A stretch of DNA of 64,000 bases from a virus, in IMG/VR virus record IMGVR_UViG_3300021962_000028, positions 94,623 through 158,622 of that record; one strand, written 5' to 3'. Positions 26,521 to 58,045 of this stretch are shown here, piece after piece. Positions within the stretch are counted from its first letter, which is position 1. Each line of letters starts with the position of its first letter. A program made the translations under genes and the position numbers. The notes beneath the pieces are model-generated. The model did not search any database. It worked only from the letters and a program-made list of their open reading frames with translations, and was not told the DNA's origin.

Positions 26521-27312
26521 TTACACCATACCCGTGGTTTGGTAATAGTTTTTAAGGTCACCAACTGTTAGGGGAGTTCCTTTTTCCTTACCTAAAACTC
26601 TATTAAACACAGGATTAGCATCCGCAACTGTTTTTGCCGATAAATCTCTACTTTTTAAAACAAAATCGTCCGATTTACCTGCTGCAATAGGGAAAAAATT
26701 ATATATGTATAAATCTTCAGGTTCTTTTATCTTACCATTCTCATAACCTTTAACCCAAAAGTCTTTAATTGCATCCATCTGAGCACTTAAATCATTTCTT
26801 AGGTCTTCTAAAGAGTATGATTTACCATTAATTGTTTTTGTACCTCCACCACTAGGACAAAATTGAATTAAACCAACACAACCAATACTATTTTTGATTT
26901 TAGGGTCTAATCCCGATTCGTGGTTCATTAACTTAATTATATATTTTTCATCAATATTAATTGCGTTGGATATTTCTTCTAACTTTTCTTGGAAAATCTT
27001 ATTATCAAGTAATTTTTGACCTTTTTCACTAATGTTATCCAATTCTAAATCTTTTAATTCTTTTTCTGAATCAGGACCTTTGAATAAATCTTTTAGTTTT
27101 TTAATAATACTAGTTTCCTCATCTTTTTTATCACCATCTAAGTCAATTGATTTAATTTTTTTAACTAAATCAGTGCCTTTCAAATAATCAACGGCTTTTG
27201 ACCCTAAGTCTTTAATATCATCAATTAAATCTTCATTAACTGAAGATTCTTGCAAATTAGATAGTTTTCTAAATCGATTTATCTCTTCTAATATTTTCTT
27301 ATTGTCATTCAT
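26521..27312 (-). CDS. Type C-tagged lytic transglycosylase
   Basis: 263 residues. The N-terminus ILEEINRFRKLSNLQESS is a type C tag. Residues about 30-110 are charged helix. The C-terminal domain has the SLT/lysozyme-fold signature: catalytic E132 in LMNHESGLDP, then SIGCVGLIQF. It would cleave peptidoglycan between MurNAc and GlcNAc. A tag on a wall-degrading enzyme fits a virion-borne protein that opens the cell wall during DNA entry. It lies six bases after the small membrane protein gene upstream. Confidence 0.85.
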   Translation of the reverse strand: MNDNKKILEEINRFRKLSNLQESSVNEDLIDDIKDLGSKAVDYLKGTDLVKKIKSIDLDGDKKDEETSIIKKLKDLFKGPDSEKELKDLELDNISEKGQKLLDNKIFQEKLEEISNAINIDEKYIIKLMNHESGLDPKIKNSIGCVGLIQFCPSGGGTKTINGKSYSLEDLRNDLSAQMDAIKDFWVKGYENGKIKEPEDLYIYNFFPIAAGKSDDFVLKSRDLSAKTVADANPVFNRVLGKEKGTPLTVGDLKNYYQTTGMV

Positions 27313-27317
27313 AGTAT

Positions 27318-27536
27318 CTACTCTTTTTTAGAATAAATATCATCAGGATTAGAATTATCAAGAATCTTAACTACATACAAATCTAATAACAACGCATAAA
27401 CGTACCACTGAGCCTCATCTAAAGAAATTTCTGGATTATTAAACGACACCTTTAAATAATAGAATAATTTAAAAACCAGATACAACCTAACCACAACTAT
27501 CAATGCGGTAAACATTATTTTAAGTATTCTTATCAT
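27318..27536 (-). CDS. Small membrane protein
   Basis: 72 residues. The first 35 are hydrophobic (MFTALIVVVRLYLVFKLFYYL), with a second moderately hydrophobic helix (WYVYALLLDLYVVKIL). It is coupled to the upstream kinase by an ATGA overlap. Function unknown. Confidence 0.6.
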   Translation of the reverse strand: MIRILKIMFTALIVVVRLYLVFKLFYYLKVSFNNPEISLDEAQWYVYALLLDLYVVKILDNSNPDDIYSKKE

Positions 27537-27940
27537 AATTTAAATTCAAATCTATTACGCATTATTTCTAATTTATCTTCAGGAACTCCGTGTACATTTT
27601 CACCACCGTGTCTATTTTCAACCACAATAGTAAAAACAGTATATCCCCATTCTTTCGCCATTTCAATATACGGGACCATTTCCCATTCTTGAGTAAATGT
27701 GTTAGACACCACAATTACATTGTTTAGGTTACCTGTTGTGTAGTTAATTAACATCGCGTTACTAACTTGTCCCTGACACCATTTATGGGCATCTTTTAAT
27801 TTAGTCACGTCAAATTTATATTCTCCGTCAACCATAAAATATTGGTCGGCCTCAAAATGAACACCACCTAATGTTTTTGCAAAAGTAGTTTTACCACTAC
27901 CTGGTATCCCTCTAACTATATATAATATTTTTTTTCCCAT
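27533..27940 (-). CDS. P-loop kinase/NTPase, polynucleotide-kinase-like
   Basis: 135 residues. Walker A GIPGSGKTTFA (10-20) is followed by VHFEADQYFM, the Asp-containing strand of the AAA_33/zeta-toxin-like kinase family. Short length and this layout resemble phage polynucleotide-kinase 5' domains and NEDD4BP2-like ATPases. The substrate may be RNA, DNA or a small molecule. It is untagged, with host-type promoter TACATTTG at 27958-27965. Confidence 0.75.
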   Translation of the reverse strand: MGKKILYIVRGIPGSGKTTFAKTLGGVHFEADQYFMVDGEYKFDVTKLKDAHKWCQGQVSNAMLINYTTGNLNNVIVVSNTFTQEWEMVPYIEMAKEWGYTVFTIVVENRHGGENVHGVPEDKLEIMRNRFEFKL

Positions 27941-27957
27941 ATTTTAGTATTTAACCA

Positions 27958-27965
27958 CAAATGTA
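27958..27965 (-). promoter_or_regulatory. -7 element TACATTTG
   Basis: Seventeen bases before the kinase ATG, in the short divergent gap with the next rightward gene. Confidence 0.55.
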
Positions 27966-28011
27966 ATGTTTTATTATGGTTAAATCAAATAATTCCGATA
28001 TTTATTTTAAA

Positions 28012-28386
28012 ATGAAAACTATGGACTTAGAAAGTATAATCAAACAAGTTTTACGTGAAGAATTTGGAACTAATAAATTCATTTATGAAGATGAATTTGG
28101 TTCAGTAGAACAAACAACAATAACTGAAGCTGAGTATAAAGGAAGAAAAGTTCAGTTAGGTAAAATAATGCAAGGTGACGTTAAGAAATTTAAAGTATAC
28201 GTTAAAAACGATAAAGGAAACGTTGTTAAAGTTAACTTTGGGTTTGGTGGTAAATCTGCCAAGGGTAAACGAATGGTCATCAAGAAAAATAACCCTGAAA
28301 GAAGAAAAAGTTTTAGAGCGAGAATGAGATGTGATAATCCAGGTCCTAGATGGAAACCACGTTATTGGGCGTGTAGAACTTGGTAA
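28012..28386 (+). CDS. Type A-tagged protein with conserved C-terminal phage domain
   Basis: 124 residues from the ATG at 28012, preferred over 27976 because MKTMDLESIIKQVLREEFG matches the tag (VLRE) and TATTTAT lies just upstream. The C-terminal 75 residues are a basic domain seen widely in marine phages (FKVYVKNDKGNVVKVNFG, RRKSFRARMRCDNPG, PRWKPRYWACRTW). Two Cys and many Arg/Trp suggest a compact nucleic-acid-binding or virion-maturation domain; I do not know its role. It ends at a strong terminator. Confidence 0.75.
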   Translation: MKTMDLESIIKQVLREEFGTNKFIYEDEFGSVEQTTITEAEYKGRKVQLGKIMQGDVKKFKVYVKNDKGNVVKVNFGFGGKSAKGKRMVIKKNNPERRKSFRARMRCDNPGPRWKPRYWACRTW

Positions 28387-28392
28387 TAATAT

Positions 28393-28419
28393 AAAAACCC
28401 CCTTAATTGGGGGTTTTTT
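28393..28419. terminator. Bidirectional terminator
   Basis: AAAAACCCCC-TTAATT-GGGGGTTTTTT between convergent genes. Confidence 0.9.
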
Positions 28420-28421
28420 AT

Positions 28422-29561
28422 TTATATCGATTCCCGAGGTACATCATCGGGATACATTTGAACAACTCTCCCACCATTTTCTTGGTGTGTTCTCTCCACC
28501 AAATTCTCAAGTATATTATTCAGTCTATTAATTATAGGCTCCCCAACGTCATAACCCATAGATTCTTCCATAGATTCTTCCATAGATTCTTCCATAGATT
28601 CTTCCATTACCATTTCACCTATTGACCTATCTATCTCCTCATTTGTTATATCAACTTGGATATTTTCCAAAATTCTCAAAGGCCTTTCAATATCCATACC
28701 CACGGCTCTTGGAATCTCCCTATTAGACATTCTCTTTTGACCATAATATTCGTTTTCTAACCACAATAGTTGTCTATTTCGTTCTTCGTCAGTTAAACTA
28801 TTCCAATTAGATACTTTGACATTATGGAATTGGTCTTTAAAGATATCCATAATATTATTAGGTAATCCTGTTTCTAACGAGTCAATTCTTTGGTCCACAA
28901 TATCCCAAAAAGAAGTTTCTCTTTCGTACGATGAATCAAGGTTTTTGAACCCCGCAACTTTATTTCCTGTTTTTTTATTAATTACATAGATTAAGATACC
29001 TCTTTTTACGTATTTGTAATAGTAGTCAGGTTCTCTATCAGATGCGGTACACCATTTAGTAGACGCTCCGTATTTTTTAGATGATAAGTAGGATAAAGGT
29101 TTTAAAACTAACCATTCATCATTTTCAAACAATTTTTCAATTTGTTTTTCCATTTCTTTGTCAACTAATTTTAAGTCGGCTAAAGACATTTGTAACTCTA
29201 ATTCTTCAAATGTTTTATATGAAGTTAAATCGGAATTTTCAATTAACTTTCTTTCATTCATCTCAATGAATTTAGTTAAAGTTGTATAGTTACTATACCC
29301 GATAAAATCACTAATAACTCTATGATAATTTTGTAATTCAAAAAATGACATATCATTAACTTTATCTTCAGATATTTTGTATTCACGTATTAATTCGTTA
29401 CGAATATCACTAGCGTGAGATTCTTTAGATTCAAACTTATGTTTGATTAAATTAACCATCATCTCAGTATATTTTGGTTTAATTACCAAATTATTCATAA
29501 GGTCAATAAGATTAATCCCGAATAAAGGATTTTGTTTTTTTAATTCATCAATTCTAGACAT
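28422..29561 (-). CDS. Helical-repeat protein with 'STKWCT' module
   Basis: 379 residues. An N-terminal helical region contains phrases like KVNDMSFFELQNYHRVI that also occur in the larger protein at 38.7-40.5 kb. Residues 165-210 (YGASTKWCTASD..., GILIYVINKKTGNKVAGFK) form a module also found there (GRGWCTSREG, TLYYVIDED). The C-terminal third has four MEES units and is acidic. It is untagged. The invariant W-C-T followed by a Tyr-rich strand suggests a shared fold or active site, but I cannot name the family. Confidence 0.68.
   Translation of the reverse strand: MSRIDELKKQNPLFGINLIDLMNNLVIKPKYTEMMVNLIKHKFESKESHASDIRNELIREYKISEDKVNDMSFFELQNYHRVISDFIGYSNYTTLTKFIEMNERKLIENSDLTSYKTFEELELQMSLADLKLVDKEMEKQIEKLFENDEWLVLKPLSYLSSKKYGASTKWCTASDREPDYYYKYVKRGILIYVINKKTGNKVAGFKNLDSSYERETSFWDIVDQRIDSLETGLPNNIMDIFKDQFHNVKVSNWNSLTDEERNRQLLWLENEYYGQKRMSNREIPRAVGMDIERPLRILENIQVDITNEEIDRSIGEMVMEESMEESMEESMEESMGYDVGEPIINRLNNILENLVERTHQENGGRVVQMYPDDVPRESI
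28557..28604 (-). repeat. Four 12-base tandem repeats (MEES)
   Basis: CATAGATTCTTC repeated four times without change in the coding sequence above. Confidence 0.9.
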
Positions 29562-29573
29562 TTTTAATATATA

Positions 29574-30599: not shown

Positions 30600-30728
30600 T
30601 ATCTTTTTTTATTATTTGTTTTGTTTGGAATATACAACATATTCAATCATATAAAACTATTTATTAGTAAACAAGCCTCCTCATTAAATTGGGGACTTTT
30701 AGGACCGTTACCGTTGTGGTAACAAACG

Positions 30729-30755
30729 AAAAGGGGAATTCGCTACTCCCCTTTT
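30729..30755 (-). terminator. Terminator after the small membrane ORF
   Basis: AAAAGGGGA...TCCCCTTTTT hairpin, four bases past the stop of the 48-residue ORF. From there to 30600 I see only AT-rich sequence with no gene. Confidence 0.8.
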
Positions 30756-30759
30756 TACT

Positions 30760-30906: not shown

Positions 30907-30910
30907 ACTG

Positions 30911-30918: not shown

Positions 30919-30930
30919 TAATAATTTTTT

Positions 30931-32369: not shown

Positions 32370-33383
32370 TTACTCAAATTTTATGTGAACGTATTCACCT
32401 AGTGGACCTGCGGCTTTTAACACATAAGGAGCACTATTCAATTCGGGAATTGCGTTTTTCAACTCATTATACGTTTTATATGCCTTAGCCTTACACAACT
32501 GTAGATTACCTGTTCCATCGTCATTGTTTCCAACAACTAAATCATCATAGTTCATAGTATCCGACCACTTTGGTTTAGTCCCGTCATTATCAATATGTCC
32601 AGCAGGTACTTTAGATGTTGATGCGTTAATCATAAGTCGATTAATTTTACCCCCATCCGCAATATGTTTTTTAATAGTGTCAATAAATGATGCGGTATGT
32701 AAATTGTGAGGAGTATCACTATTTTCCGCGAAAAAATCACCAATATTATACGTTTTTGGTAATTTTAACATATTTTGATTAACCCCAAAATCTTTTAAAG
32801 ATATTGGTTGTCCGTGCATTGAGACCTCAAGTCGAATACCATAATCCTTACCGTGTTTAAATGCCGATTGTTGGAAGAATATCTTATTTCCTGGTTTTGC
32901 GTCGATGGTATTTAATCTACCCTCAACACCATCAGGGAATTCTGTACCAACAACAAACCCACCTAAGGTTGGTGCCATATATTTTTGAGAATAAAACACA
33001 ATTGGTAACATACTACCGAAGTTGGCAATCGCTTCATTTTTACCGTAGATATACTTACCGTAATTAATTGCATTTTTCATTTTTTGGTCAAAATTAAGAC
33101 CTGATAATTCTTTCCCTTTAATATTTTCATCGTCAACTTCTTGAGTCTTTTGAGTCCACTCTGCGGATATTTCATTTGTGGACGGGAATTCAACTGACAT
33201 ATTAGGACTTAACTCTCCTGTTGATTTATCCGCCAAACACATTCTACCATTATCAACATAAAAATAAAAACCACCAAGAGCGAAATATTCCCCTGCGTGA
33301 TTTAAACTGTCATCGTGTTCCTTAATAACTCTAGTGACAATTCTTCTTAAGTCAGATTCGGTTAATTTTATAATTTTTTTCAT
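32370..33383 (-). CDS. Type A-tagged hypothetical protein
   Basis: 337 residues. MKKIIKLTESDLRRIVTRVI followed by KE is the archetype of the type A tag, ending in VIKE. The body is mixed alpha/beta with no known domain; phrases such as IDAKPGNKIFFQQSAFKHG and LMINASTSKVPAGHIDNDG have a periplasmic-enzyme look. INASTSKVPAG could resemble an OmpA-like or peptidase loop, but not enough to name. TATTTAT lies upstream. The tag suggests packaging into virions. Confidence 0.72.
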   Translation of the reverse strand: MKKIIKLTESDLRRIVTRVIKEHDDSLNHAGEYFALGGFYFYVDNGRMCLADKSTGELSPNMSVEFPSTNEISAEWTQKTQEVDDENIKGKELSGLNFDQKMKNAINYGKYIYGKNEAIANFGSMLPIVFYSQKYMAPTLGGFVVGTEFPDGVEGRLNTIDAKPGNKIFFQQSAFKHGKDYGIRLEVSMHGQPISLKDFGVNQNMLKLPKTYNIGDFFAENSDTPHNLHTASFIDTIKKHIADGGKINRLMINASTSKVPAGHIDNDGTKPKWSDTMNYDDLVVGNNDDGTGNLQLCKAKAYKTYNELKNAIPELNSAPYVLKAAGPLGEYVHIKFE

Positions 33384-36664: not shown

Positions 36665-37522
36665 TTACTTACAAGATTTTTTAGCAATCTCCACCTGTTC
36701 GTCAGATAAATTATGAGCTAACACATATTCATCCCAAGTAAATCCATTATATCGACTTGCCTCATTTTTAATTACACCATCCACTAAATAATTACAATAA
36801 AAATTATTGGCATCTTTTTGTTTTGTATCATTTTCGTTAACATCGGTTGTCGTGCTCGTATTTGTTGTGGTAGAATTTGTTGTAGAATTAGACTGCGGAT
36901 TTGTAACAGTTATTGTCGAATTTTCAGGTTTTTTATTTAACTCGTAATTATAATTTTTTTGTTGACTTTTAAGTAAATTGTCAGATTCCGATGAGGTTTT
37001 TGGTTTCACAGGTTCTTGAAATTTAGGAGGGCCTACAATATCACCAAGTTGGGATTGTACACTATTATCTGTCGACTTAACCCATCCTGAAGTTACTTTA
37101 CTATTCCAAACATACGTTTTATCGTCAAGTTGTCCTGATAAATCGCTTAATTTTACAGGTCCCATTTGTTTACCATCTTTATAATAATACCACCCGTCCT
37201 CAACTTTGTTAGAACCCCCACTATTATTCGCATTATTATTAGCGTTTAATCTAACTAAAAAAGCGTCCTTATATGATTGCCAAACACCATTAGTTGCAAC
37301 ACCATATGTTCCCATATCTTTTTCAGGTAAAGTACCGCCATTAAACCATTTAGGGTCTTCTCCGTTCATATATTTTTGAAACGCGATTATTTTATCCTTA
37401 GTGTCTAATTCGGCTGGTGGAGTAAACGTTTGTTCATTTAATGATGAATTTTTAGAACCGTATATCGTTCTAATGTGACTTCTATCGTTTTCTGTAATAA
37501 CTAATGCTAAACTATTTTTCAT
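36665..37522 (-). CDS. Type B-tagged protein with GYF_2-like domain
   Basis: 285 residues. MKNSLALVITENDRSHIRTI is a type B tag. Residues about 105-150 (DGWYYYKDGKQMGPVKLSDL, VWNSKVTSGWVKSTD) match the GYF_2 (DUF4339) domain, which binds membrane or peptide partners. The N-terminal part resembles a peptidoglycan-binding repeat (GTYGVATNGVWQSYKDAF). A Thr/Asn/Ser-rich linker precedes a Cys-containing tail. It lies directly after another tagged gene. Confidence 0.72.
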   Translation of the reverse strand: MKNSLALVITENDRSHIRTIYGSKNSSLNEQTFTPPAELDTKDKIIAFQKYMNGEDPKWFNGGTLPEKDMGTYGVATNGVWQSYKDAFLVRLNANNNANNSGGSNKVEDGWYYYKDGKQMGPVKLSDLSGQLDDKTYVWNSKVTSGWVKSTDNSVQSQLGDIVGPPKFQEPVKPKTSSESDNLLKSQQKNYNYELNKKPENSTITVTNPQSNSTTNSTTTNTSTTTDVNENDTKQKDANNFYCNYLVDGVIKNEASRYNGFTWDEYVLAHNLSDEQVEIAKKSCK

Positions 37523-38103: not shown

Positions 38104-38412
38104 TTAATCAAATCGATTAACATCAATATAGTATTTTATTGTTCTTCTTGCGATGTTAGTATCTAAATTTGGGAACTCGTCTTCAATCTCGTTGAAAATT
38201 CGACTAACTAAGTATTTTTTATTATCATCCAAATTTCTACCCTTATCGTCAATCATAATAGCCCTATGGACAAACGGTTTGTCCCCAAAGTTATATTCTG
38301 TTTTATGTATTGGGAAATGTCTTTTAAGATAGTTTAAAAGTCTTTTGTCGGTATTATCTGTATACTTACTGATAATGTCTTTTTTCTCCTCCTCTGTGAT
38401 AATAAGTCTCAT
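38104..38412 (-). CDS. Type B-tagged small protein
   Basis: 102 residues. MRLIITEEEKKDIISKYTD is a type B tag of the ITEEEKK form. The rest is a short alpha/beta segment. TATTTAT precedes the ATG. Unknown. Confidence 0.66.
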   Translation of the reverse strand: MRLIITEEEKKDIISKYTDNTDKRLLNYLKRHFPIHKTEYNFGDKPFVHRAIMIDDKGRNLDDNKKYLVSRIFNEIEDEFPNLDTNIARRTIKYYIDVNRFD

Positions 38413-38456: not shown

Positions 38457-38726
38457 ATGAAAAGAATGCTTGAACATCTTATTAATGTAATCCAAAGGGA
38501 AGACCTCGAACTAATGTTTGGTAAGGGGAGTAAGGTGGTTGTAGAATCTGTAACATATTCCACAAATACAAAAAAAATCGTAATCCATTCTAAAGTACTT
38601 GCAACTGATGTTGATGACTCAATAGACATTTTCCCAACAGGTTTAAATATGTTAGTAAACGAGGGTTGGAAATATATGGGATATAACGAAGAATTAACTT
38701 TAATAAACTCGTTAGACGTTCTTTAG
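38457..38726 (+). CDS. Small hypothetical protein
   Basis: 89 residues, MKRMLEHLINVIQREDLELM then strands (KVVVESVTYSTNTKKIVIHS). It is divergent from the tagged gene to the left and overlaps the convergent gene by four bases. No known domain. Confidence 0.58.
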   Translation: MKRMLEHLINVIQREDLELMFGKGSKVVVESVTYSTNTKKIVIHSKVLATDVDDSIDIFPTGLNMLVNEGWKYMGYNEELTLINSLDVL

Positions 38727-40516
38727 AAACTCTTAGTATAGAATCCTGACCCCTCATTGTTAAACTTGTCTTGGAATCCTTCAGGTAGTTTAGGTTCTGA
38801 ACCTTTTAAATTAATAAACATTAAGTTTGGTAAATTTAATACTGATGACGGAATACTTTCTAAGTTAGGATTGTCAGGTAATGCTAAGAATGATAAATTA
38901 GATAATTGACCTACTTCTTCAGGAATACTACTTACACAATTCATTAATAATAGAGCTTCTAAATTTTTAAATCGACTAATACTTTTAGGTAATGCGAATG
39001 TAAAATTATCTTTTGATTTATTATTAAATAAGAAATTAGTAATATCTGATGGTAAACTCGCGAATAATTCATCAAATCCATATAACGCAACAAATTTAGA
39101 TGAGTTACCGCTAGGGTATTCAATTTCAACTTTAGTTCCGTTAACCGCCAAATCTTTACCAAATTTAGGTTTCATTTCTTCCTTAAGTTTTCTTAACATA
39201 GGTGTGTTAAGTAACGCAATGTCTTCAGTACTTAATTGATTAACATTAGTTTGTTTTAATTTTTCAATTTTCTTACCAATATAATATCTAATCACTTCAG
39301 GTTCTGAAGACCCAATCATACTTGTACTTAAACTCATACCTAAAGCAATGTATTTTTTCTTTAAATCAGGTGTTAAATGAGCATATTGTTCGTCAGAAAG
39401 TCTAGGACTGTTATATTCTAACCACATCTCAACCTCCTGAGGTGAGTTAAAAGACTTCATAGGGTTGTCACCAACTCTGGCGTTTCTAACCGTATTGATT
39501 AACTGTCTTTCTTCTTGTGTGAGAGGTTTTGGTTCAAAAATATACTCTAATCCTTCTAATTTTGGAACTTTTGACACAATTTCACTAAATGGTATATTTG
39601 TACTACCACCATATCTACCTGAGTTAGATTTATCAGCCATAGACATTCTACCATTTGGGTCCACAAGGATTACCGTGGCGAAGTTTAAATCATCGAATGG
39701 TTTGTCCTCATCGATTACGTAATAAAGTGTTCTCTCGTGACCTAATCTGTAGTTATAATACATATTTCCACTACCTTCACGACTTGTACACCAACCTCGA
39801 CCGTTTCTTAATCTAATACATTGGTCTTTAGTTAGTGGTGCGAAAATTTTTAATCCATTTTCATCATATTTTAAATCAATGTTTCCAAAATCTTCTTTTT
39901 CTTTATCGGAAGCACTTTTCTTTCCTTGTAAACCATCTAAAAGGTGTTCTAATTCACTAAAAGACATCTTGTCAATACCTTTAGTATCAAAAGGAATTAA
40001 GTCGAAATTTTCCCCATAAGAATCAATATAATAAAGTATTTGGTCTTGAGTTAAATTAGGATTTTCTTTAGAAAACTTATTAATCATTTTCTTAGTTAAT
40101 AGTCTTGGATATAAATCGTCAACCATTTTAACTAAATTTAAAAAACTATACTTTAAAATGTTTTGTTTTTCTTTTGGTAATTCAGATTGAATTTCTAAAA
40201 ACTTTTTGATATATCTCTTAAGGTTATTATTTTCAATACCCTTTTCTTTTTTCTTAAATTCAGTAAAGATATCATCCATACTTCTCGCAGATTGTTTGGA
40301 CTGAATTAAAGATTTTAAATCATTATAAGAATATCTCATAATATCTCTCTTCTCAGCAGGCAAACCTTGTTTGTATCTGTCAAATAAATCGATATTAGAA
40401 ATTATTTCTTCACGGCTATCTGTAGTGTCAGCACTAAATTTGGAGTATAACTGATTTTTAACTTTTTCAGAAACCTCCAGTATAATATTTTTACTTAATA
40501 AGTTTAATAATTTCAT
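38723..40516 (-). CDS. LRR protein with helical repeats and 'WCT' module
   Basis: 597 residues. The start MKLLNLLSKNIILEVSEKVK is a weak tag (IILE). Residues 35-195 have three helical repeats with a shared phrase (IMRYSYNDLKSLI, ILKYSFLNLVKMV, IDKMSFSELEHLL). Residues 236-270 (GRGWCTSREGSG, TLYYVIDED) are the WCT module also at 28.4-29.6 kb. Residues about 495-590 are leucine-rich repeats (FKNLEALLLMN, LSNLSFLALPDNPNLESIP, LPNLMFINLKG), which usually bind protein partners. A phage LRR protein could bind host factors. Cellular location unclear; no signal peptide. Confidence 0.75.
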   Translation of the reverse strand: MKLLNLLSKNIILEVSEKVKNQLYSKFSADTTDSREEIISNIDLFDRYKQGLPAEKRDIMRYSYNDLKSLIQSKQSARSMDDIFTEFKKKEKGIENNNLKRYIKKFLEIQSELPKEKQNILKYSFLNLVKMVDDLYPRLLTKKMINKFSKENPNLTQDQILYYIDSYGENFDLIPFDTKGIDKMSFSELEHLLDGLQGKKSASDKEKEDFGNIDLKYDENGLKIFAPLTKDQCIRLRNGRGWCTSREGSGNMYYNYRLGHERTLYYVIDEDKPFDDLNFATVILVDPNGRMSMADKSNSGRYGGSTNIPFSEIVSKVPKLEGLEYIFEPKPLTQEERQLINTVRNARVGDNPMKSFNSPQEVEMWLEYNSPRLSDEQYAHLTPDLKKKYIALGMSLSTSMIGSSEPEVIRYYIGKKIEKLKQTNVNQLSTEDIALLNTPMLRKLKEEMKPKFGKDLAVNGTKVEIEYPSGNSSKFVALYGFDELFASLPSDITNFLFNNKSKDNFTFALPKSISRFKNLEALLLMNCVSSIPEEVGQLSNLSFLALPDNPNLESIPSSVLNLPNLMFINLKGSEPKLPEGFQDKFNNEGSGFYTKSF

Positions 40517-40872: not shown

Positions 40873-41472
40873 TTACGGTTTTTTAGAAGTCACCATATCT
40901 TCAATTGACAACGCAATACCTTTACCGTATTCATTCCTTCTTGAAGGTTTCTCTTTAATAAAATAATCGTAACCTGTAATTACTTCTCCGTCTTTAAGTG
41001 GATGCCCGTCACCTTTAGTGTCTAACATACCTTTGATAGGTAAATCCCCACTTACTCTTAATTTTCCTTTAGTTGGTATTCCTTCATCATTAACAAAAAA
41101 TATCCAATTACCTTTCGCTCTTTCCATTGAAGGTGTGATTAATCTAGCCACATTATTTCCATTAAGACCTTCATCATTATTTTTAAAGTTTGCATTACTT
41201 TCATTATAACTTACACCTAGTTCATCCAAAGTAGGTAATTGTTTACCAGTATCGACAACTCTTCCTATTGAACCATCTTTTTTGTATTCTTTCATCCAAA
41301 CATCAAAACTATCTCCGTTAGAAATAAAATATAACTCTTCGGCAACTGTAGGTTCATTAACACCATCGTTCCTTCTGAAAATATAATCAAACGTTGGTAG
41401 GGCGTTTTCTGAAATAACCTTTCTAACAATCCTAACTAAGTCAGATTCTGTTAACTTTATAACTTTTTTCAT
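40873..41472 (-). CDS. Type A-tagged hypothetical protein
   Basis: 199 residues from the internal ATG at 41472: MKKVIKLTESDLVRIVRKVI followed by SE is almost identical to the tag at 33.4 kb while the rest of the protein is unrelated. The body is a mixed alpha/beta region (YIFRRNDGVNEPTVAEELYF). TATTTAT lies upstream. Strong example of a shared tag on a different protein. Confidence 0.72.
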   Translation of the reverse strand: MKKVIKLTESDLVRIVRKVISENALPTFDYIFRRNDGVNEPTVAEELYFISNGDSFDVWMKEYKKDGSIGRVVDTGKQLPTLDELGVSYNESNANFKNNDEGLNGNNVARLITPSMERAKGNWIFFVNDEGIPTKGKLRVSGDLPIKGMLDTKGDGHPLKDGEVITGYDYFIKEKPSRRNEYGKGIALSIEDMVTSKKP

Positions 41473-41987: not shown

Positions 41988-42377
41988 TTATTTTTCTTTT
42001 CCTGTTGAACAATCAACTTCCCAATTGGCTTGTTTCTGTCCATTATACTCTAAAATAGACCAACATCTACCTGTCATTGGGATATCAGCCCCTAAACAAG
42101 TACCAATACTATCACTTTCTCCATTATTAAATACATCTTTACCAACTCTAGGTTCTTTAATAAAGGTAATTACAGGTTTACCGTCTTCAGATACAATATC
42201 GGTTAAAGTGTAACTTTCAGGGTCGATAAGAGCTTCCCCACCTTCACATCTTTGGTAATAAATGTCACCTAAAGAGTCCTCAACAGTTTTTTGTTGTGGT
42301 TGTTCTGAAATTACTACACCTCTTTTGTAACCAAGAAGGTATTTCATCTCGTGTATTTCGTTAATGACTGACCTCAT
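41988..42377 (-). CDS. Type C-tagged hypothetical protein
   Basis: 129 residues from the ATG at 42377, which follows the upstream stop (TAATATG). MRSVINEIHEMKYLLGYKRG and then VVISEQ form a type C tag that ends in ISEQ. The body has three Cys and a compact beta-rich look (VITFIKEPRVGKDVF, CLGADIPMTGRCWSIL). Unknown. Confidence 0.68.
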   Translation of the reverse strand: MRSVINEIHEMKYLLGYKRGVVISEQPQQKTVEDSLGDIYYQRCEGGEALIDPESYTLTDIVSEDGKPVITFIKEPRVGKDVFNNGESDSIGTCLGADIPMTGRCWSILEYNGQKQANWEVDCSTGKEK

Positions 42378-42378: not shown

Positions 42379-42657
42379 TTATGATAATTTATAAAGTTCT
42401 TTATCTCCAACTCTACAAAGTTTAGGACATCCATTTTCCATAACCATCATAACAACTCTACCATCAGTATTAAATATTTTACCACCAATAGTTTTCGCTA
42501 ATTCAAATTCTGAACAGTTTGGTTGTGATGTTTGTTTTACGCATTTTTCAGAATCAGTACCTGTAGGTGCCGCAGGTGCCGCAGGTTGTTCTAATATTAC
42601 ACTTTTGATTAACTGAGTTAATTCTCTCTCGTTAAGTCTTACTATTCTTTTTGCCAT
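42379..42657 (-). CDS. Type A-tagged small protein
   Basis: 92 residues. MAKRIVRLNERELTQLIKSV and then ILEQPAAPAAP: the tag ends VILE and is followed by a Pro/Ala linker, as if made for cleavage. Four cysteines are in the remainder. TATTTAT upstream. Forms an operon with the downstream type C-tagged gene. Confidence 0.68.
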   Translation of the reverse strand: MAKRIVRLNERELTQLIKSVILEQPAAPAAPTGTDSEKCVKQTSQPNCSEFELAKTIGGKIFNTDGRVVMMVMENGCPKLCRVGDKELYKLS

Positions 42658-45007: not shown

Positions 45008-45475
45008 TTAACAAATCGGCATTTGTTTTATCTTCACCTTACCAAATATATCTGAAATAATGACATTTAACAACCCTCCATTCGGTTTTGTTCTAATATA
45101 TTCATATAATTTATCCACCATTTCTTTTGGAACGGTAACATTTGGACCAATCATCTTCAATAACAGTCCCATACCACCTGTTTTTTGTTGTTCCCAATTA
45201 TCGTGAACATATTTGATTGCTTCTCCCTCAGGCATTTTACTATCGGCACTAATCTTCACCAATAAATCATCAATTTGACCATAAATCGGTTTTAAATATC
45301 CGTCCACGTTACCACAAATTTTATTAACAGGGGTATTTTCCAATATGTCCCCCATAGAATTAACCATATTACTGATAATATCTTTATAATTGAACAAATT
45401 AAACCCTGTTTTCTCTTGTTCGTGTAGTCTCAAAATTGATTTCTTTTCCTCCTCGGTGATTATAAATTTTCCCAT
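45008..45475 (-). CDS. Type B-tagged hypothetical protein
   Basis: 155 residues. MGKFIITEEEKKSILRLHEQ is the clearest GKFIITEE form; another copy is at 50.2 kb. The body is helical (YLKPIYGQIDDLLVKISADS) with a C-terminal GKVKIKQMPIC. TATTTAT upstream. Unknown. Confidence 0.66.
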   Translation of the reverse strand: MGKFIITEEEKKSILRLHEQEKTGFNLFNYKDIISNMVNSMGDILENTPVNKICGNVDGYLKPIYGQIDDLLVKISADSKMPEGEAIKYVHDNWEQQKTGGMGLLLKMIGPNVTVPKEMVDKLYEYIRTKPNGGLLNVIISDIFGKVKIKQMPIC

Positions 45476-45865: not shown

Positions 45866-46975
45866 TTATCTTAAATTTGTTAATGGTGGGTTCTTAAAGA
45901 TTGCGAAGTGATTATTTTCCACTCTATAGTTTTTATTATCAAATATCAATAATCCTTTAGGACCCGCAAAGATGAGGTATTGTACTGGTTTACTCTTATA
46001 GTTTTTCATTTGATAGGAGTTCACAACATACTCTTTGGTATTCTCATCAACCTTATACCAACTAAGTGGTTTAACCTGAGCATAACTCTCACCACTTTCA
46101 GTAGTAATTTCAAGGTCCTTACCGTCATATCTATCTTGTTTTGAACCCGAACAGAATTGTTTAATGTTCTTTGGGTCAATATTATACGGAGACTCAGTTA
46201 ATTTCTTAATTGCCAAGTTTTCAGTTTTGGTTCCCGAGTCATATGATTTAAGATTAATCTCAACAAGTTCTTCCATATACTTACCTCCCTTGAACAATCC
46301 TTCCGCATTATCATAAATCCATTGTTGGAAACTTTTAATACTAACTCCATCAGGGGTTTCCATATTATTAAACACTCCACGCATATACCATTCAATAAGT
46401 TTTTTGATAACCATTGGATTGGTGTCAAAATAATTAAGGATTGACCAAGCTTGACCTGGTATGTTTGTGTTTGGAATATCAATTAATCCGTCTTCACTAT
46501 TACAAATACCTTCACTATCGGTAAACCTATTTTTTCCAATATTACTTGGATATAATTTGTACAACGTGTCCAACATAAACTTAGGAAATCCTGAACTTGA
46601 TTTTTTCAAGAAATTCTCATCCAATTTAATATCGTGAGTTTCTAAAGTTTTCTTAATCTTGTCATACTCATCACTCAAAATATAAGGGGCTCCCGTAGAT
46701 TTTGTAAAATTAATTTTATCTACAGTGAAGTCAAACGCCTCCTTAGTTAAAACATTACTAAGTTTAACGGTAGAATTCGAATTGGCGTCTTTCATCTCCT
46801 TAATCTTCTCCGCATCTTCCTTAGACATTCCGTTTATATAAACAAATGATTTTTGATTTTTCGTATCAGGATTAAAGTTAGTAAAACGTACGACAATCTC
46901 ATTCGGAAATTCAATCTCCGTCTGTTGTTCAATAATTAAATTTTTATACTGACTCTCAGTTATTACTATCTTCAT
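45866..46975 (-). CDS. Type B-tagged, possible nuclease-fold protein
   Basis: 369 residues from the ATG at 46975, which follows TATTTAT and begins MKIVITESQYKNLIIEQ, a type B tag. A large helical middle is followed by a C-terminal strand region YDGKDLEITTESGESYAQVK (near residues 280-300). This D...LE(I)...QxK layout resembles the PD-(D/E)xK nuclease core, but I cannot confirm it. A tagged nuclease injected with phage DNA would be consistent with attack on host or rival DNA. Confidence 0.62.
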   Translation of the reverse strand: MKIVITESQYKNLIIEQQTEIEFPNEIVVRFTNFNPDTKNQKSFVYINGMSKEDAEKIKEMKDANSNSTVKLSNVLTKEAFDFTVDKINFTKSTGAPYILSDEYDKIKKTLETHDIKLDENFLKKSSSGFPKFMLDTLYKLYPSNIGKNRFTDSEGICNSEDGLIDIPNTNIPGQAWSILNYFDTNPMVIKKLIEWYMRGVFNNMETPDGVSIKSFQQWIYDNAEGLFKGGKYMEELVEINLKSYDSGTKTENLAIKKLTESPYNIDPKNIKQFCSGSKQDRYDGKDLEITTESGESYAQVKPLSWYKVDENTKEYVVNSYQMKNYKSKPVQYLIFAGPKGLLIFDNKNYRVENNHFAIFKNPPLTNLR

Positions 46976-49453: not shown

Positions 49454-49470
49454 AATATCTTGGTAACTTA
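49449..49470. repeat. Dispersed 22-base repeat, copy 3
   Basis: Identical to 11228-11249. Overlaps the stop codon of the tagged gene and one arm of its terminator. Confidence 0.75.
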
Positions 49471-50217
49471 CATAAAGTTTCCGTCCATTCCAAAACGTCT
49501 AACTAATTTACGTCTACGTTTACAAGGACTACTATGTCTTCTTGAACTCTTAACGATTATTGAAATTATGATTATGAATAATAGTAACGCCCCGATGGCA
49601 ATTAATAAACTCGCAGTTATACTAACCCCTCCGATAACAAGAAGTGGAGCAACTTGTTCATCCACTCTTTTACCCTTAAGTAATTCTTTCGCCTTAGAGA
49701 TAGAATCCTTAATCTTTGATTTCATATCCTGTAGAGATTCCACACTTTGAGATTGAGCCCATTCCCATACTTTAGATAATACATTGTCCTCCTCAGGATT
49801 ACCCGTTTGTGGTGCCGTACATAATGGTTCAGTTGGGTCCACGATTTCCCCCACAGGAACTGACACCCCATTGTTCTCTAATTCAGTTTGGATTAATTCC
49901 ATTTCCTCAGACTCCATTACTAATCTTGAATTAGATTCATTAACCATCTTTTCCCACACCGCTTTACAATAGTTAGTTTCACTAACATCTATCTTGATTG
50001 GATTTACATATCCTTTCTCTCTCGCCAAATTACCTGTCATTTTCTGACACATATTCTTATCCCCACTATTAGGCGTTTTAATTATACAGATTTGTTTAGA
50101 CGCATCTGTGATATTTGATTTACACCATTCGTTTTCCTCAGGTGTTGTAATAACAGTAGATTCATATAATCCACGTATATGTTTTTTATCTTCTTCAGTA
50201 ATTATAAATTTTCCCAT
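49468..50217 (-). CDS. Type B-tagged protein with C-terminal membrane span
   Basis: 249 residues from the ATG at 50217 (MGKFIITEEDKKHIRGLYES), chosen for the tag and TATTTAT upstream. The body is charged with several Cys (ENEWCKSNITDASKQICII). A hydrophobic span near 205-228 (LLVIGGVSITASLLIAIGAL) is followed by a basic tail RRHSSPCKRRRKLVRR. Possibly an envelope-inserting protein. It is the last tagged gene before the gene-poor region. Confidence 0.68.
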   Translation of the reverse strand: MGKFIITEEDKKHIRGLYESTVITTPEENEWCKSNITDASKQICIIKTPNSGDKNMCQKMTGNLAREKGYVNPIKIDVSETNYCKAVWEKMVNESNSRLVMESEEMELIQTELENNGVSVPVGEIVDPTEPLCTAPQTGNPEEDNVLSKVWEWAQSQSVESLQDMKSKIKDSISKAKELLKGKRVDEQVAPLLVIGGVSITASLLIAIGALLLFIIIISIIVKSSRRHSSPCKRRRKLVRRFGMDGNFM

Positions 50218-52410: not shown

Positions 52411-52776
52411 ATGAAATATCTTATCACAGAATCACAAATAGATAGAATGGTGTTTAAATATCTTGACAGTCAGGACTTTATTATTAAAGGTGATGACACA
52501 AGTTTATTCTTTATTAATTCAGAAGATGATGACACAAGTTTATTCTTTATTAATTCAGAAGATGATGAGCTCGCTAAAATTAGATATGATGAATATGATG
52601 GGTTTTGTTACATTAATATTGATTTAAATAAAGAAGTTTCTTCTATATTTTCTTTAGGACGAGATAATACTCAGAGAGTTATCAGTAGGTGGGTTGAAAA
52701 TACTTTACAGATGAAAGTTATAAAAACCACCGACGCATATATGAACATTGATTCTTGGTTGAGAATCCCTAACTAA
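52411..52776 (+). CDS. Type B-tagged small acidic protein with internal duplication
   Basis: 121 residues. MKYLITESQIDRMVFKYLDS is a type B tag. DDTSLFFINSED is perfectly repeated. The closing segment RVISRWVENTLQMKVIKTT matches the helix-strand ending of the paralogue family. First gene right of the origin-like region. Function unknown. Confidence 0.72.
   Translation: MKYLITESQIDRMVFKYLDSQDFIIKGDDTSLFFINSEDDDTSLFFINSEDDELAKIRYDEYDGFCYINIDLNKEVSSIFSLGRDNTQRVISRWVENTLQMKVIKTTDAYMNIDSWLRIPN
52492..52563 (+). repeat. Perfect 36-base tandem duplication
   Basis: Two identical 36-base copies in frame, giving two copies of a 12-residue unit; probably recent. Confidence 0.92.
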
Positions 52777-53736: not shown

Positions 53737-53852
53737 AACTCACTTTGAAATGCTAAGATACTAATTTAATTTGAATCGTACAAATCTCCCCCGATATAAG
53801 TTTAAAACCTTATAATGTGTATTTATAAGGACATAACCTTATATTTATTACT

Positions 53853-54164: not shown

Positions 54165-54169
54165 AGATA

Positions 54170-54472
54170 ATGGATTATATAATACCACAAGAGAGATTAA
54201 AGAACCTTATGACATCATTCTTAGATGAGAAGTTATCAGGCGGTATAAGTGAAATAGATAACTTTATCGTTATATATTACCACGACCTGAATGATGATTA
54301 TTATGACTCCGAAGTTCTTATGGAGTTTGATAGTTCAGATGGTAGATTATATATTGATAAATCCTTTATCAACACCTTTGATAAGTTATTCCCCTTCGGT
54401 AAGTCTCAGTTATTTATTGAGGAGTGGTTTGAAAACTATTTCGGTGTTGAGGTAGAATACGTAGAAACTTAA
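54170..54472 (+). CDS. Small-paralogue array, member 2 (weakly tagged)
   Basis: 100 residues. MDYIIPQERLKNLMTSFLDE; the tag is degenerate, with Pro replacing Thr and no (I/L)xE. C-terminal FIEEWFENYFGVEVEYVET keeps the array signature. Five bases after the previous gene. Confidence 0.66.
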   Translation: MDYIIPQERLKNLMTSFLDEKLSGGISEIDNFIVIYYHDLNDDYYDSEVLMEFDSSDGRLYIDKSFINTFDKLFPFGKSQLFIEEWFENYFGVEVEYVET

Positions 54473-54488
54473 AAATATATTTATTACT

Positions 54489-55565
54489 ATGAGAAATTTA
54501 GTTACAGAAGTAAGTAAGATGAAAAAGATAATGGGATTGGACGAAGCGTCCAAACCTACCTATAGTCCTGAAGTAAAAACAATTATCGGGATTTTAAAAG
54601 ATAATAAAGTTTACAGTGCCCAAATTCAGAAATTAATTAATAAGATTGAGTATCATTCTAAACAAGGATTGGTAGACTTTGGTTTATTAACAAGAGGGAT
54701 TAAAAAAACATTAGAATTAAAAGGTAATAAAAATATTAATATATTCGAGTTCTTTAAACAAATTACAAAATCATTAGACAAGAGAACAACCAAAAAAGAA
54801 GTTGTTAAACCTGAGGAAGAACCATCCATTTTGGATAAAGACATCTATAAGAAAGAATTGTTTTTCTTACAGGTAGAACTTCTAAAACTACAGGAGTGGT
54901 TAAAACAAACAAGTAAGACTGTTATCATTGTATTTGAAGGAAGAGACTCCGCAGGTAAAGGTTCCACTATTAAGAAGTTCACCGAGAACTTAAATCCTAG
55001 ATACTATAAGGTCGTTGCTCTTGGTATTCCTACACCTGACGAAAGAAAGAATTGGTGGGATAGGTATAGAAAACAAATTGAAAAAGGTAAGATAAACTTC
55101 TTTGATAGAAGTTGGTACAATAGAGGATTGGTTGAACCTGTTATGGGTTATGGTACAACCGAAGAATATGAGGACTTTATGGAAAACGTTCAGGACTTTG
55201 AAGAGTCATTGGTTGTTGATGGAGATTACTTATTTAAACTTTGGTTCTCTATAGATAAAGAAACTCAGGCAAATAGATTTGATTTCAGACAGAAGTCCCC
55301 ATTAAAATATTGGAAGTATTCTGAGAATGATGAGAAGATGCAAGATGTGTGGGAAAAGTTTACTGAGTACAAACAAAAACTATTTGATAAAACGTCAACC
55401 GTAAACCATCCGTGGGTTGTTTTGGATTCTAACGATAAAAAGATTTCAGGATTAAATTCTATCAGATATATTCTACAGAACATTCCTTATGCTAATAAGG
55501 ATGAAGATGTTTTAAATAAAGAATTTCCTGAAGCAATGACGGTATTAAAACCAAAAGTTAATTAA
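54489..55565 (+). CDS. Type C-tagged polyphosphate kinase 2
   Basis: 358 residues. The tag is MRNLVTEVSKMKKIMGLDEA. A 120-residue helical extension precedes the kinase, which is the PPK2 fold: Walker A FEGRDSAGKGST (149-160), Walker B region INFFDRSWYNRGLVEPVMG (202-220), and a lid such as RFDFRQKSPLKYWKYS. PPK2 uses polyphosphate to make NTPs from NDPs (or the reverse). Early nucleotide regeneration in an injected enzyme would be useful to a phage. TATTTAT is four bases before ATG. PPK2 on a phage with a virion-type tag is unusual. Confidence 0.92.
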   Translation: MRNLVTEVSKMKKIMGLDEASKPTYSPEVKTIIGILKDNKVYSAQIQKLINKIEYHSKQGLVDFGLLTRGIKKTLELKGNKNINIFEFFKQITKSLDKRTTKKEVVKPEEEPSILDKDIYKKELFFLQVELLKLQEWLKQTSKTVIIVFEGRDSAGKGSTIKKFTENLNPRYYKVVALGIPTPDERKNWWDRYRKQIEKGKINFFDRSWYNRGLVEPVMGYGTTEEYEDFMENVQDFEESLVVDGDYLFKLWFSIDKETQANRFDFRQKSPLKYWKYSENDEKMQDVWEKFTEYKQKLFDKTSTVNHPWVVLDSNDKKISGLNSIRYILQNIPYANKDEDVLNKEFPEAMTVLKPKVN

Positions 55566-55569
55566 GTTA

Positions 55570-55872
55570 ATGAGATATCAGGTATCACATACTCAGCTTC
55601 TTCGTCTTATGGATATGTACTTATCTAAGACCGAATATATCTTGATTGGTGGTGAATTTGTTGGTGAGTTAATTCTTCTACAAAAAGGAACTAAAGACTA
55701 CCACGACTTTATTTATACATACGAAGATGAACGTTTATTGGTAGAGACAAATATCGTGTGGGCGTTATCAGGTTTCTTTAATATATCAGAAGAAGATATG
55801 TTGGACTATATTGGAGAATGGTTTGAGAATAAATATGAACTACCCGTTTCAGAAATAATTAATTGGACATAA
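55570..55872 (+). CDS. Small-paralogue array, member 3 (degenerate tag)
   Basis: 100 residues. MRYQVSHTQLLRLMDMYLSK, then acidic body and MLDYIGEWFENKYELPVSEI, the array signature. Unknown. Confidence 0.65.
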   Translation: MRYQVSHTQLLRLMDMYLSKTEYILIGGEFVGELILLQKGTKDYHDFIYTYEDERLLVETNIVWALSGFFNISEEDMLDYIGEWFENKYELPVSEIINWT

Positions 55873-55873
55873 T

Positions 55874-56197
55874 ATGAAATACATTATAACCGAATCTAAA
55901 ATGAATAATATGATTAAGGATTATATCCTTAAGAACTATGATGTTGCCGATGTTGAGTTTGGGACCAAACGTGTTCAGTTGGGTTCAGGTCCAAATGATA
56001 AGGGTGAGTCAATTATTAATAGAAAAGTAATCACCATTACCATTAATAATCTTAATAAAAGAATGAATATTGATGAGGTTAAAGAAATTAAGAATTCTAT
56101 TTTAAGAAACCTAAATAACGTTTTTAATATAGATTCAGGGGTTTATGGTTCTGAATGGGAACTAAAATTCTATCAAATAAAGAAAATAGAAATATAA
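55874..56197 (+). CDS. Small tagged protein, array member 4
   Basis: 107 residues. MKYIITESKMNNMIKDYILK tag. The body is beta-rich (KGESIINRKVITITINNLN), with no W-F ending. One base after member 3's stop, so co-translated. Unknown. Confidence 0.66.
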   Translation: MKYIITESKMNNMIKDYILKNYDVADVEFGTKRVQLGSGPNDKGESIINRKVITITINNLNKRMNIDEVKEIKNSILRNLNNVFNIDSGVYGSEWELKFYQIKKIEI

Positions 56198-56198
56198 T

Positions 56199-56609
56199 AT
56201 GAAATACATTATAACAGAAAGTAAATTGAACTCCTCCGTATATAATTTTATGGATAATTTATTTGCATCAAAAGATGGTAATCCTGAAATATATAAACTT
56301 GACTCTGTCGATTCTGATGGCGCGTCATTGATTGACTCATTTGATTTTGTTAACTCCGATTATTATAGTGATGAAGGTTCTGAATATCTTTTTAGCTGGA
56401 CAGGTAAAGAATATTTTAAGACTATTCATAGTCAAGGTTATATAACTAAAACTGAGTATGAAAAGTTCTTATCAGAATCACCTATGGTTGTTATTTTAGA
56501 TAAAATTGCAAAAGAAGAATTAAATAATTTTTTTGGTGATTTGTGGAAGCCCGTATTTAAACAATGGTTTAAAGATAAAACAGGATTGGATTATAAAACT
56601 TTAGACTAA
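56199..56609 (+). CDS. Small-paralogue array, member 5
   Basis: 136 residues. MKYIITESKLNSSVYNFMDN tag. C-terminus FFGDLWKPVFKQWFKDKTGLD with the W-F motif. The stop overlaps the next ATG (TAATG), so coupled. Confidence 0.68.
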   Translation: MKYIITESKLNSSVYNFMDNLFASKDGNPEIYKLDSVDSDGASLIDSFDFVNSDYYSDEGSEYLFSWTGKEYFKTIHSQGYITKTEYEKFLSESPMVVILDKIAKEELNNFFGDLWKPVFKQWFKDKTGLDYKTLD

Positions 56610-56938
56610 TGAAATACATTATAACAGAATCACAAGTGGACGTAATGAAGAAGTATATGTACGATATACTCGATAAGGATTCTGAATCTTGGGATGTAGA
56701 ACACTTTAAGTTTAGAGAGATGAGAGTAACTGATGAGTCAGGAGATGTTCTGTTTAACTACTCTACTAATAATGAAATGTATCAGGGCGAAATGTCCGAT
56801 ATATTAACTATATCCCCCAAACTACTTAGAAAAATAGAAGGATTTCTTCCTATTATGGATGAGTACTATATCTCTGATTGGTTTAGTGAGAAGTACAAAC
56901 GTAGAGTGGATGAAATAATGATTAATGACGAAGATTAA
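56609..56938 (+). CDS. Small-paralogue array, member 6
   Basis: 109 residues. MKYIITESQVDVMKKYMYDI tag. Ending YYISDWFSEKYKRRVDEIMI. Coupled on both sides with one to zero bases spacing. Confidence 0.68.
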   Translation: MKYIITESQVDVMKKYMYDILDKDSESWDVEHFKFREMRVTDESGDVLFNYSTNNEMYQGEMSDILTISPKLLRKIEGFLPIMDEYYISDWFSEKYKRRVDEIMINDED

Positions 56939-56939
56939 T

Positions 56940-57263
56940 ATGAAGTTACAAGAGAACATACATAGAATACAAACTATGATGGGTTTAATTAATGAATCAG
57001 AATCTAAATTCTTTATTAGAAGAGCCGATTTAGATAAGGTTAAAAAATTACTGCCGATTAATTCAGACCAAGTATTCCACGAGACAGATAGTTATAAACA
57101 ATTTAAATATGAATTAACATTAAGAGCCGTGGAAGCGGTATTATGGAATGAACACGAACTCGGGTGGGAAGATTTACCTTCTGATGAGGAAATAGAGTTT
57201 GTTAATGATGTTTCTAATATGTTTGAAGACTTAATTAAAAAATTATATAAATCACATTCTTAA
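56940..57263 (+). CDS. Type C-tagged small protein, array member 7
   Basis: 107 residues from the ATG at 56940. MKLQENIHRIQTMMGLINES tag of the C class, with INES. The body is acidic helix (SDEEIEFVNDVSNMFEDLIK). Unknown. Confidence 0.65.
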   Translation: MKLQENIHRIQTMMGLINESESKFFIRRADLDKVKKLLPINSDQVFHETDSYKQFKYELTLRAVEAVLWNEHELGWEDLPSDEEIEFVNDVSNMFEDLIKKLYKSHS

Positions 57264-57271
57264 AAATAGAT

Positions 57272-58045
57272 ATGAATTTACACGAAAATATACAAAGAAT
57301 TAAAGATATGATGATTTCTGAGGAAATGGTACAATCAGACGCTTGGAAATCAATAAAGAAAACATTAGATATTCTTAAAAAGAAAAAGAAAGTTTTATTA
57401 TTAAGTTGTTCAAACAGATACAATTTTGATGAAAAGAATATTGATATCCCTAAATCAAAAATGATAGCAATGTATCTAAATGAAGAGTTAAAAGATAACT
57501 CAGTTTTAATAGATGTTACCGACCTTAAAATACTACCTTGTGAAGGTAATGTTTCTAGAAAAGACGGTAATAGTTGTGGACTAAAAGAATCTACCCTTAA
57601 AGACAAAGATAAGAACCCTACAGGTAATCATAGATGTTGGGTTAATATTAATAACAAGTCAGACGAGTTATGGAAAATATCTAAAGAGTTATTTGAATCA
57701 GACGCAGTCATATTCTTTAGTTCAGTAAGATGGGGTCAAGCAAATATGTACTATCAAAATTTAATTGAAAGATTAAATTGGTTAGAAAATAGACATACAA
57801 CATTAGGAGAATCTAACATTATCAAAAACATTGAAACAGGATTTATTTGTGTTGGTCAAAATTGGAATGGTGAAAACGTGACTGAGACTCAGAAAGAAGT
57901 TCATAGGTTCTACGGATTTAAACCTAACAATAATTTGTATTGGAATTGGCAATACACAAAAGATGAGAATGATGAAACTCAAAAATCATATAAAGACTCT
58001 CATAAAAAGTTTATTAAAGACACTAAACTCCCCGATACTGAATAA
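57272..58045 (+). CDS. Type C-tagged NAD(P)H-dependent flavodoxin-fold reductase
   Basis: 257 residues. The tag is MNLHENIQRIKDMMISEEM. A flavodoxin-like fold follows: KKVLLLSCSNRYNFDE, VLIDVTDLKILPCEGNVS, DAVIFFSSVRWGQANMYYQN, which lines up with the flavin phosphate loops of FMN_red/Flavodoxin_2 proteins; GFICVGQNWNGENV is the fourth strand. It probably reduces flavins or quinones with NAD(P)H. Two cysteines in GNVSRKDGNSCG and NHRCWVN are notable. A packaged redox enzyme is unusual. Confidence 0.75.
   Translation: MNLHENIQRIKDMMISEEMVQSDAWKSIKKTLDILKKKKKVLLLSCSNRYNFDEKNIDIPKSKMIAMYLNEELKDNSVLIDVTDLKILPCEGNVSRKDGNSCGLKESTLKDKDKNPTGNHRCWVNINNKSDELWKISKELFESDAVIFFSSVRWGQANMYYQNLIERLNWLENRHTTLGESNIIKNIETGFICVGQNWNGENVTETQKEVHRFYGFKPNNNLYWNWQYTKDENDETQKSYKDSHKKFIKDTKLPDTE

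What the first reader, a model, noticed from the sequence alone, without database searches (positions are those of the whole stretch)
26521..58045. Tagged enzymes form a set that would suit injection at the start of infection
Tags are found on a wall-cutting transglycosylase (26.5 kb), a polyphosphate kinase (54.5 kb), an NAD(P)H-flavin-type reductase (57.3 kb), a zinc peptidase (13.3 kb) and a possible PD-(D/E)xK protein (45.9 kb). By contrast, many untagged enzymes (phosphoesterases, IMPDH-like, thioesterase, kinase) appear to be normal cytoplasmic gene products.
Basis: inference. Interest (0 to 1): 0.85.

Follow-up and report, generated by a model that had tools for sequence, protein, structure and literature searches.

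The report
Head-loading leaders on phage enzymes
A freshwater phage, probably of Bacteroidetes, marks about a quarter of the genes in this window, including a polyphosphate kinase and a wall-cutting enzyme, with short interchangeable front-end tags that look like the T4 phage's packing labels, so these enzymes are probably loaded into the phage head and delivered into the next cell.

Summary
The tags are real. Leader types A to D (10-30 aa) recur at the N-termini of unrelated proteins. At profile score 10 or more, type A is on 31 families against 1 for internal-Met decoys. Of 95 called window genes, 26 carry one.

Leaders usually end at [LIV]xE, the T4 gp21 cut motif. PPK2 keeps such a site in 46/47 relatives although spacing varies. 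The phage has gp21-type protease, gp23-type capsid and portal; the capsid protein has an invariant LINE|A at residue 60. Leaders swap between relatives of one enzyme: the transglycosylase has type D or A. PPK2-lysozyme fusions join at [IV]NE|Q, 7/7.

Best reading: T4-like capsid-targeting sequences, new and greatly expanded. Packaging is well supported; injection is inferred from T4.

Enzyme list: PPK2 and SLT solid; FMN-reductase-like probable, but few orthologues have a recognised leader; PD-(D/E)xK tagged but weakly identified; zinc peptidase has HELQH but no clean leader. Untagged enzymes stay untagged (phosphoesterase 0/19, endolysin 0/27). No proteomics available.

The parts
54489..54545 (+). 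type D leader of PPK2, MRNLVTEVSKMKKIMGLDE|A (predicted cut after E19)
   Evidence: score 26.0; [LIVM]xE at the leader end in 46/47 relatives (43 by the script, 3 more SLTE by eye)
54489..55565 (+). PPK2 polyphosphate kinase, leader-bearing, Walker motifs intact
   Evidence: Pfam PF03976 2.4e-71; motifs
27247..27312 (-). type D leader of the transglycosylase, MNDNKKILEEINRFRKLSNLQE|S
   Evidence: score 20.1; relatives L313 and L314 carry type A-like leaders instead
26521..27312 (-). SLT lytic transglycosylase, leader-bearing
   Evidence: Pfam SLT 1.1e-5
57272..57322 (+). type D leader of the reductase-like protein, MNLHENIQRIKDMMISE|E
   Evidence: score 22.9; recognised in only 1 of 14 relatives
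57272..58045 (+). FMN-reductase-like flavodoxin-fold protein
45866..46975 (-). type B leader (MKIVITESQYKNLIIE|Q) on a possible PD-(D/E)xK protein; true start probably 46975
13293..14282 (-). HELQH metallopeptidase-like fusion protein; leader degenerate or absent
32370..33383 (-). type A leader protein MKKIIKLTESDLRRIVTRVIKE|H, unknown function
   Evidence: score 42; 3/3 family members leader-bearing
40873..41472 (-). type A leader protein MKKVIKLTESDLVRIVRKVISE|N
42379..42657 (-). type A leader protein MAKRIVRLNERELTQLIKSVILE|Q
41988..42377 (-). type D variant leader protein MRSVINEIHEMKYLLGYKRGVVISE|Q
   Evidence: same leader on other families
5886..7751 (-). type D leader protein MKNNMLLTEVSRIREMMGIKLLTE|S (621 aa)
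62349..63029 (+). type D leader protein MKNNLLTEINRFKTLSNINE|P
56925..57263 (+). type D leader protein MTKINMKLQENIHRIQTMMGLINE|S
45008..45475 (-). type C leader protein MGKFIITEEEKKSILRLHE|Q
49468..50217 (-). type C leader protein MGKFIITEEDKKHIRGLYE|S; true start probably 50217
38104..38412 (-). type C leader protein
10688..11143 (-). type C leader protein
36665..37522 (-). weak type C leader (ends SLNE|Q) on a protein with a GYF_2 match
   Evidence: score 8.5
11906..12526 (+). type B leader protein MKVLITENQYRTILLE|S; B-type leader recognised in 26 of 32 family members
52411..52776 (+). type B (MKYLITESQ) small protein
55874..56938 (+). three consecutive type B (MKYIITES) small proteins
58047..59402 (+). 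two type B proteins (58047-58487, 58488-59402)
61501..61851 (+). type B protein (start at internal Met)
63026..63325 (+). type B protein MKYVITENQYKLIRRE|S

Best explanation
The tags are capsid-targeting sequences that work like those of T4 internal proteins. Shown by sequence: several different short leaders, each with the pattern of an amphipathic N-terminal helix, precede unrelated proteins, and they usually end at an (L/I/V)xE motif. Inferred: the leader binds the prohead scaffold core; the gp21-type protease cuts after the E while it trims the capsid protein and the core, and so frees the mature enzyme inside the head; the cargo then leaves with the DNA at infection. Cargo in this phage includes PPK2 (nucleotide phosphorylation from polyphosphate) and a peptidoglycan transglycosylase. 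Enzymes without the leader are made and used in the cytoplasm.
For: N-terminal 4-mers ITES, LTES, RLTE, TESD and TESQ occur in 11-16 families against 0.2-2 in internal windows. Profile hits by family at score 10: A 31 vs 1 decoy, B 21 vs 1, C 28 vs 3, D 14 vs 0. Across 84 tagged families the only nearly invariant columns are M1 and one leader E. PPK2 leader end [LIVM]xE in 46/47 (43 scored, 3 SLTE added by eye) vs 13% of control windows. Protease phrog_207, capsid phrog_138 and portal phrog_213 present. Capsid protein SFLINE|A at residue 60 in 27/27 and protease IIKE|S at residue 35 in 49/49. Leader swap: SLT with D or A; families 0, 54, 126 and 135 with two types. Fusion junctions [IV]NE|Q in 7/7. 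Leader genes just downstream of the capsid gene 33/134 vs 5/225 upstream, p 4e-11. All 13 large tagged contigs with a gp23-type capsid also have the protease. Codon use at conserved leader residues is broadly that of the genome, so selection is mainly on protein. Cultured Immutovirus has its own recurrent LxE-ended leaders. T4 CTS and gp21 L/I-x-E: PMC9026906; T4 Ips share only the leader: PMC12373910.
Against: No virion proteomics and no cleavage data. Type B leaders on small proteins often lack a clear second LxE. The reductase family mostly lacks a recognised leader (1/14). Most T4-type phages are not known to load so many proteins. The untagged comparison set (largest families) differs in size from the tagged set.
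Confidence: 0.76

Rival explanations
1. The leaders load proteins into the prohead, but the cargo serves head assembly or stays inside; it is not injected.
For: Leader genes sit by the capsid gene; T4 IPIII also affects head assembly (PMC9026906).
Against: Cargo includes PPK2 and several wall-binding or wall-cutting domains, which suit entry or early infection more than assembly.
Confidence: 0.14
2. The leaders are tail/baseplate or export signals; wall-cutting cargo acts at the tail tip or in lysis.
For: The SLT domain resembles baseplate-hub and tail lysins; wall-active domains are common among tagged families with a Pfam match.
Against: PPK2 does not belong in a tail; the leaders are charged and amphipathic, not Sec-like; the lysis endolysin has no leader in 27 relatives; LxE ends fit a prohead protease.
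Confidence: 0.06
3. The shared N-terminus is a DNA or RNA element (translation start favoured by the phage bS21, or a recombination site), not a peptide signal.
For: These phages encode bS21 (PMC9723584).
Against: Codons at conserved residues vary broadly with genome usage (LTE: five Leu and four Thr codons) and upstream DNA shows no common motif in the 15 examples read.
Confidence: 0.02
4. For the small MKYIITES proteins (52.4-63.3 kb) the shared N-terminus is simply part of one paralogous family.
For: They lie in arrays of about 100-aa proteins with similar C-termini by eye.
Against: The same B leader also precedes larger unrelated proteins (11906-12526, 45866-46975) and swaps with A and C elsewhere.
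Confidence: 0.1

Closest known systems
T4 capsid targeting sequence (CTS) of IPI, IPII, IPIII and Alt, cut by gp21 (PMC9026906)
   Same: Short N-terminal leader shared by unrelated proteins, ends at L/I-x-E; gp21-type protease, gp23-type capsid and gp20-type portal present
   Different: At least four leader types per genome instead of one; dozens of cargo families; cargo includes PPK2 and peptidoglycan enzymes; leaders about 16-30 residues instead of about 10; leader sequences not evidently related to the T4 CTS
Phage P1 DarB N-terminal packaging signal (PMC9024508)
   Same: N-terminal signal sufficient for head loading of a protein that enters the host
   Different: P1 has no consensus among Dar N-termini and appears to have no separate scaffold system
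phiKZ/SPN3US ejection proteins (PMC5694885, PMC10052503)
   Same: Many proteins packed in the head and cut after an xxE motif by a gp21-related protease
   Different: S/A-x-E cut motif in phiKZ; to my knowledge no recurrent short leader code described there

Membership tests
T4-type CTS cargo | short N-terminal leader shared by otherwise unrelated proteins | tested here: met
T4-type CTS cargo | leader ends in an (L/I)xE prohead-protease site | tested here: met
   PPK2 46/47; most of 36 type A families end [LIV]xE at residues 20-24; weaker for type B
T4-type CTS cargo | phage encodes gp21-type protease with gp23/gp20-type head | tested here: met
T4-type CTS cargo | leader exchangeable between cargos | tested here: met
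   natural swaps
T4-type CTS cargo | leader sequence related to the T4 CTS | not tested
   no evident similarity beyond the LxE end, but no formal comparison was made
T4-type CTS cargo | cargo found cut inside mature heads and delivered to the host | not testable with these tools
   no virion proteomics found
PPK2 | PPK2 domain with Walker A and B motifs | tested here: met
SLT transglycosylase | SLT domain above Pfam cut-off | tested here: met
   25.4 vs 21.3 bits
NADPH-dependent FMN reductase | FMN_red profile match above cut-off | tested here: inconclusive
   15.8 vs 24 bits; fold hits agree but low-confidence model
PD-(D/E)xK nuclease | fold and catalytic D...(D/E/Q)xK | tested here: inconclusive
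   motif conserved in 5/5; fold match weak

The most novel reading that the evidence does not exclude
A whole group of bS21-type large Bacteroidetes phages uses a multi-leader head-loading code with interchangeable leaders of separate origin, delivering dozens of enzymes, among them a ready-made polyphosphate kinase (sometimes made as one chain with a lysozyme and split in the prohead), so that nucleotide metabolism and wall opening start before any phage gene is expressed.
Probability: 0.5. Interest if true: 0.85.

Novelty: new variant of a known kind. Interest (0 to 1): 0.68.

Why it matters
If right, the leaders let one predict from sequence alone which of hundreds of unknown phage proteins are carried in the virion and delivered to the cell, for an abundant freshwater phage group. 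It extends the T4 capsid-targeting idea from a few small inhibitors to metabolic and wall-cutting enzymes, and offers ready-made leaders for loading proteins into phage heads. It makes testable why a phage would bring PPK2 with it.

Tried and rejected
A DNA- or RNA-level element: rejected on synonymous variation. A 22-aa type A consensus against cultured phages gave no tblastn hit, so these leaders were not detected there at that sensitivity; the cultured relative Immutovirus has different leaders. Tags without a T4-type head: six of 21 large tagged contigs lack the protease match; three of them have a tail-sheath match, one (G010) is rich in leaders, and G014 and the weak-match contig G019 gave no other head type in the proteins scanned. 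Proteomics of Immutovirus: not found. PPK2 in bacterial genomes: no close relative with that query, so a tag-free cellular comparison was not obtained. PDB sequence searches for the reductase and PD-(D/E)xK families: nothing.

Full report
What was checked. The window is the last 64 kb of a 158,622-base virus record (G000:C1:94623-158622). The finding says that a sequence tag marks a set of enzymes that would suit injection. I read the tags as N-terminal leaders and tested them against related phage DNA: 160 viral loci found with PPK2 and with the capsid protein.

The tag is real. Counting by protein family to avoid counting one gene many times, the 4-mers IITE, ITES, LTES, RLTE, TESD and TESQ sit at N-termini of 11-16 families against about 0.2-2 in internal windows. 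Profiles of four leader types, seeded from this genome, hit 31, 21, 28 and 14 families at score 10, against 1, 1, 3 and 0 for windows that start at internal methionines. When 84 proteins from different families are aligned, the only nearly invariant columns are M1 and one leader glutamate. In the window 26 of 95 called genes carry a leader; in the left 94.6 kb only four do.

The leader ends at a protease site. Type A has [LIV]xE at residues 20-24 in most of 36 families. PPK2 has [LIVM]xE at the leader end in 43 of 47 relatives by script; three more read SLTE, where the search window cut the motif, giving 46 of 47, although the spacing after MG varies; control windows give 13%. T4 gp21 cuts after L/I-x-E and T4 internal proteins carry such a removable capsid-targeting sequence (PMC9026906). 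This phage has the T4-type protease, capsid and portal. Its capsid protein has five invariant LxE sites in the first 60 residues, the last being SFLINE|A, matching in form leader ends such as GLINE|S and GLDE|A; the protease and a small core protein also carry invariant sites.

Leaders are modules. The transglycosylase has a type D leader here and in L312, and type A-like leaders in L313 and L314 with 76% and 66% identity in the enzyme. Families 0, 54, 126 and 135 also show two types. In some close relatives PPK2 is fused to a phage lysozyme; in all seven the junction is [IV]NE|Q exactly where the unfused protein stops, as expected for a chain split by the same protease. Synonymous codons at conserved leader residues follow genome use broadly, so the selection is mainly on the peptide.

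Place and company. Same-strand leader genes lie within 4 kb downstream of the capsid gene (33 of 134 genes) far more than upstream of it (5 of 225; p 4e-11). Of 21 large contigs chosen for a type A leader, 15 have the gp21-type protease and all 13 with a gp23-type capsid do. No background rate of that protease among large contigs without leaders was obtained, because the control pattern found none. The record carries a bS21-like ORF opposite the head genes (G000 62094-62327, by eye), the layout of freshwater Bacteroidetes bS21 phages (PMC9723584); so the host is probably a Bacteroidetes. Its cultured relative, Flavobacterium phage immuto 2-6A, has different recurrent leaders: one of the form MKKQILSEQF.RMQ.LAGIITE|S on two proteins and one of the form F.L..FL.EN.LT.N on four, so the principle may be wider than these sequences.

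The enzyme list. PPK2 and SLT are solid. 57272-58045 is probably a flavodoxin-fold FMN or quinone reductase, but relatives mostly start differently and only 1 of 14 has a recognised leader. 45866-46975 is tagged; PD-(D/E)xK is a weak call. 13293-14282 has HELQH but no clean leader; in relatives the stand-alone peptidase domain does start with an LxE leader. Untagged enzymes here are Clp protease, UDPG dehydrogenase, HNH, YceI, two phosphoesterases, IMPDH, thioesterase, AAA_33 kinase and the GH19 endolysin; phosphoesterase 0/19 and endolysin 0/27 have leaders in relatives. Across 84 tagged families the Pfam matches are mainly wall-related (PG_binding_1, VanY, LysM, lysozymes, SLT) plus PPK2, whereas 84 untagged families match 44 Pfam families of ordinary phage functions. 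The sets differ in family size, so this contrast is suggestive (p about 0.02 at best).

Verdict. Packaging by T4-like capsid-targeting leaders is the best explanation (about 0.76). Injection follows by analogy with T4 Ips, which share only such a leader and are injected (PMC12373910), and is not shown here. No paper describing these leaders was found in the searches made.

Noticed in passing
L010, L011, L016, L020, L022, L023, L024 (PPK2 locus): PPK2 is fused to a C-terminal phage lysozyme domain in close relatives; the junction is [IV]NE|Q in 7 of 7, while the window's PPK2 stops at that point.
   Followed up: partly
window 24398-26299 (-): Phage protein with signal-peptide-like start, cohesin domain and a type IX secretion C-terminal sorting domain (Por_Secre_tail 5.6e-11): would use the host's own secretion system.
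   Followed up: no
G000 62094-62327 (+), left of the window: bS21-like ORF opposite the head genes, as in the freshwater Bacteroidetes bS21 phages (identified by eye).
   Followed up: partly
window 2820-3494 (+): Clp protease (2.7e-58), no leader.
   Followed up: no
L170-L173 (Flavobacterium phage immuto 2-6A): Its own recurrent leaders, e.g. on gp076 and on gp077 (annotated cob(I)alamin adenosyltransferase), directly upstream of the terminase gene.
   Followed up: partly
window 38723-40516 (-): 597-aa protein starting MKLLNLLSKNIILE|V, LxE-ended like a leader but of no recognised type; weak leucine-rich-repeat match.
   Followed up: no
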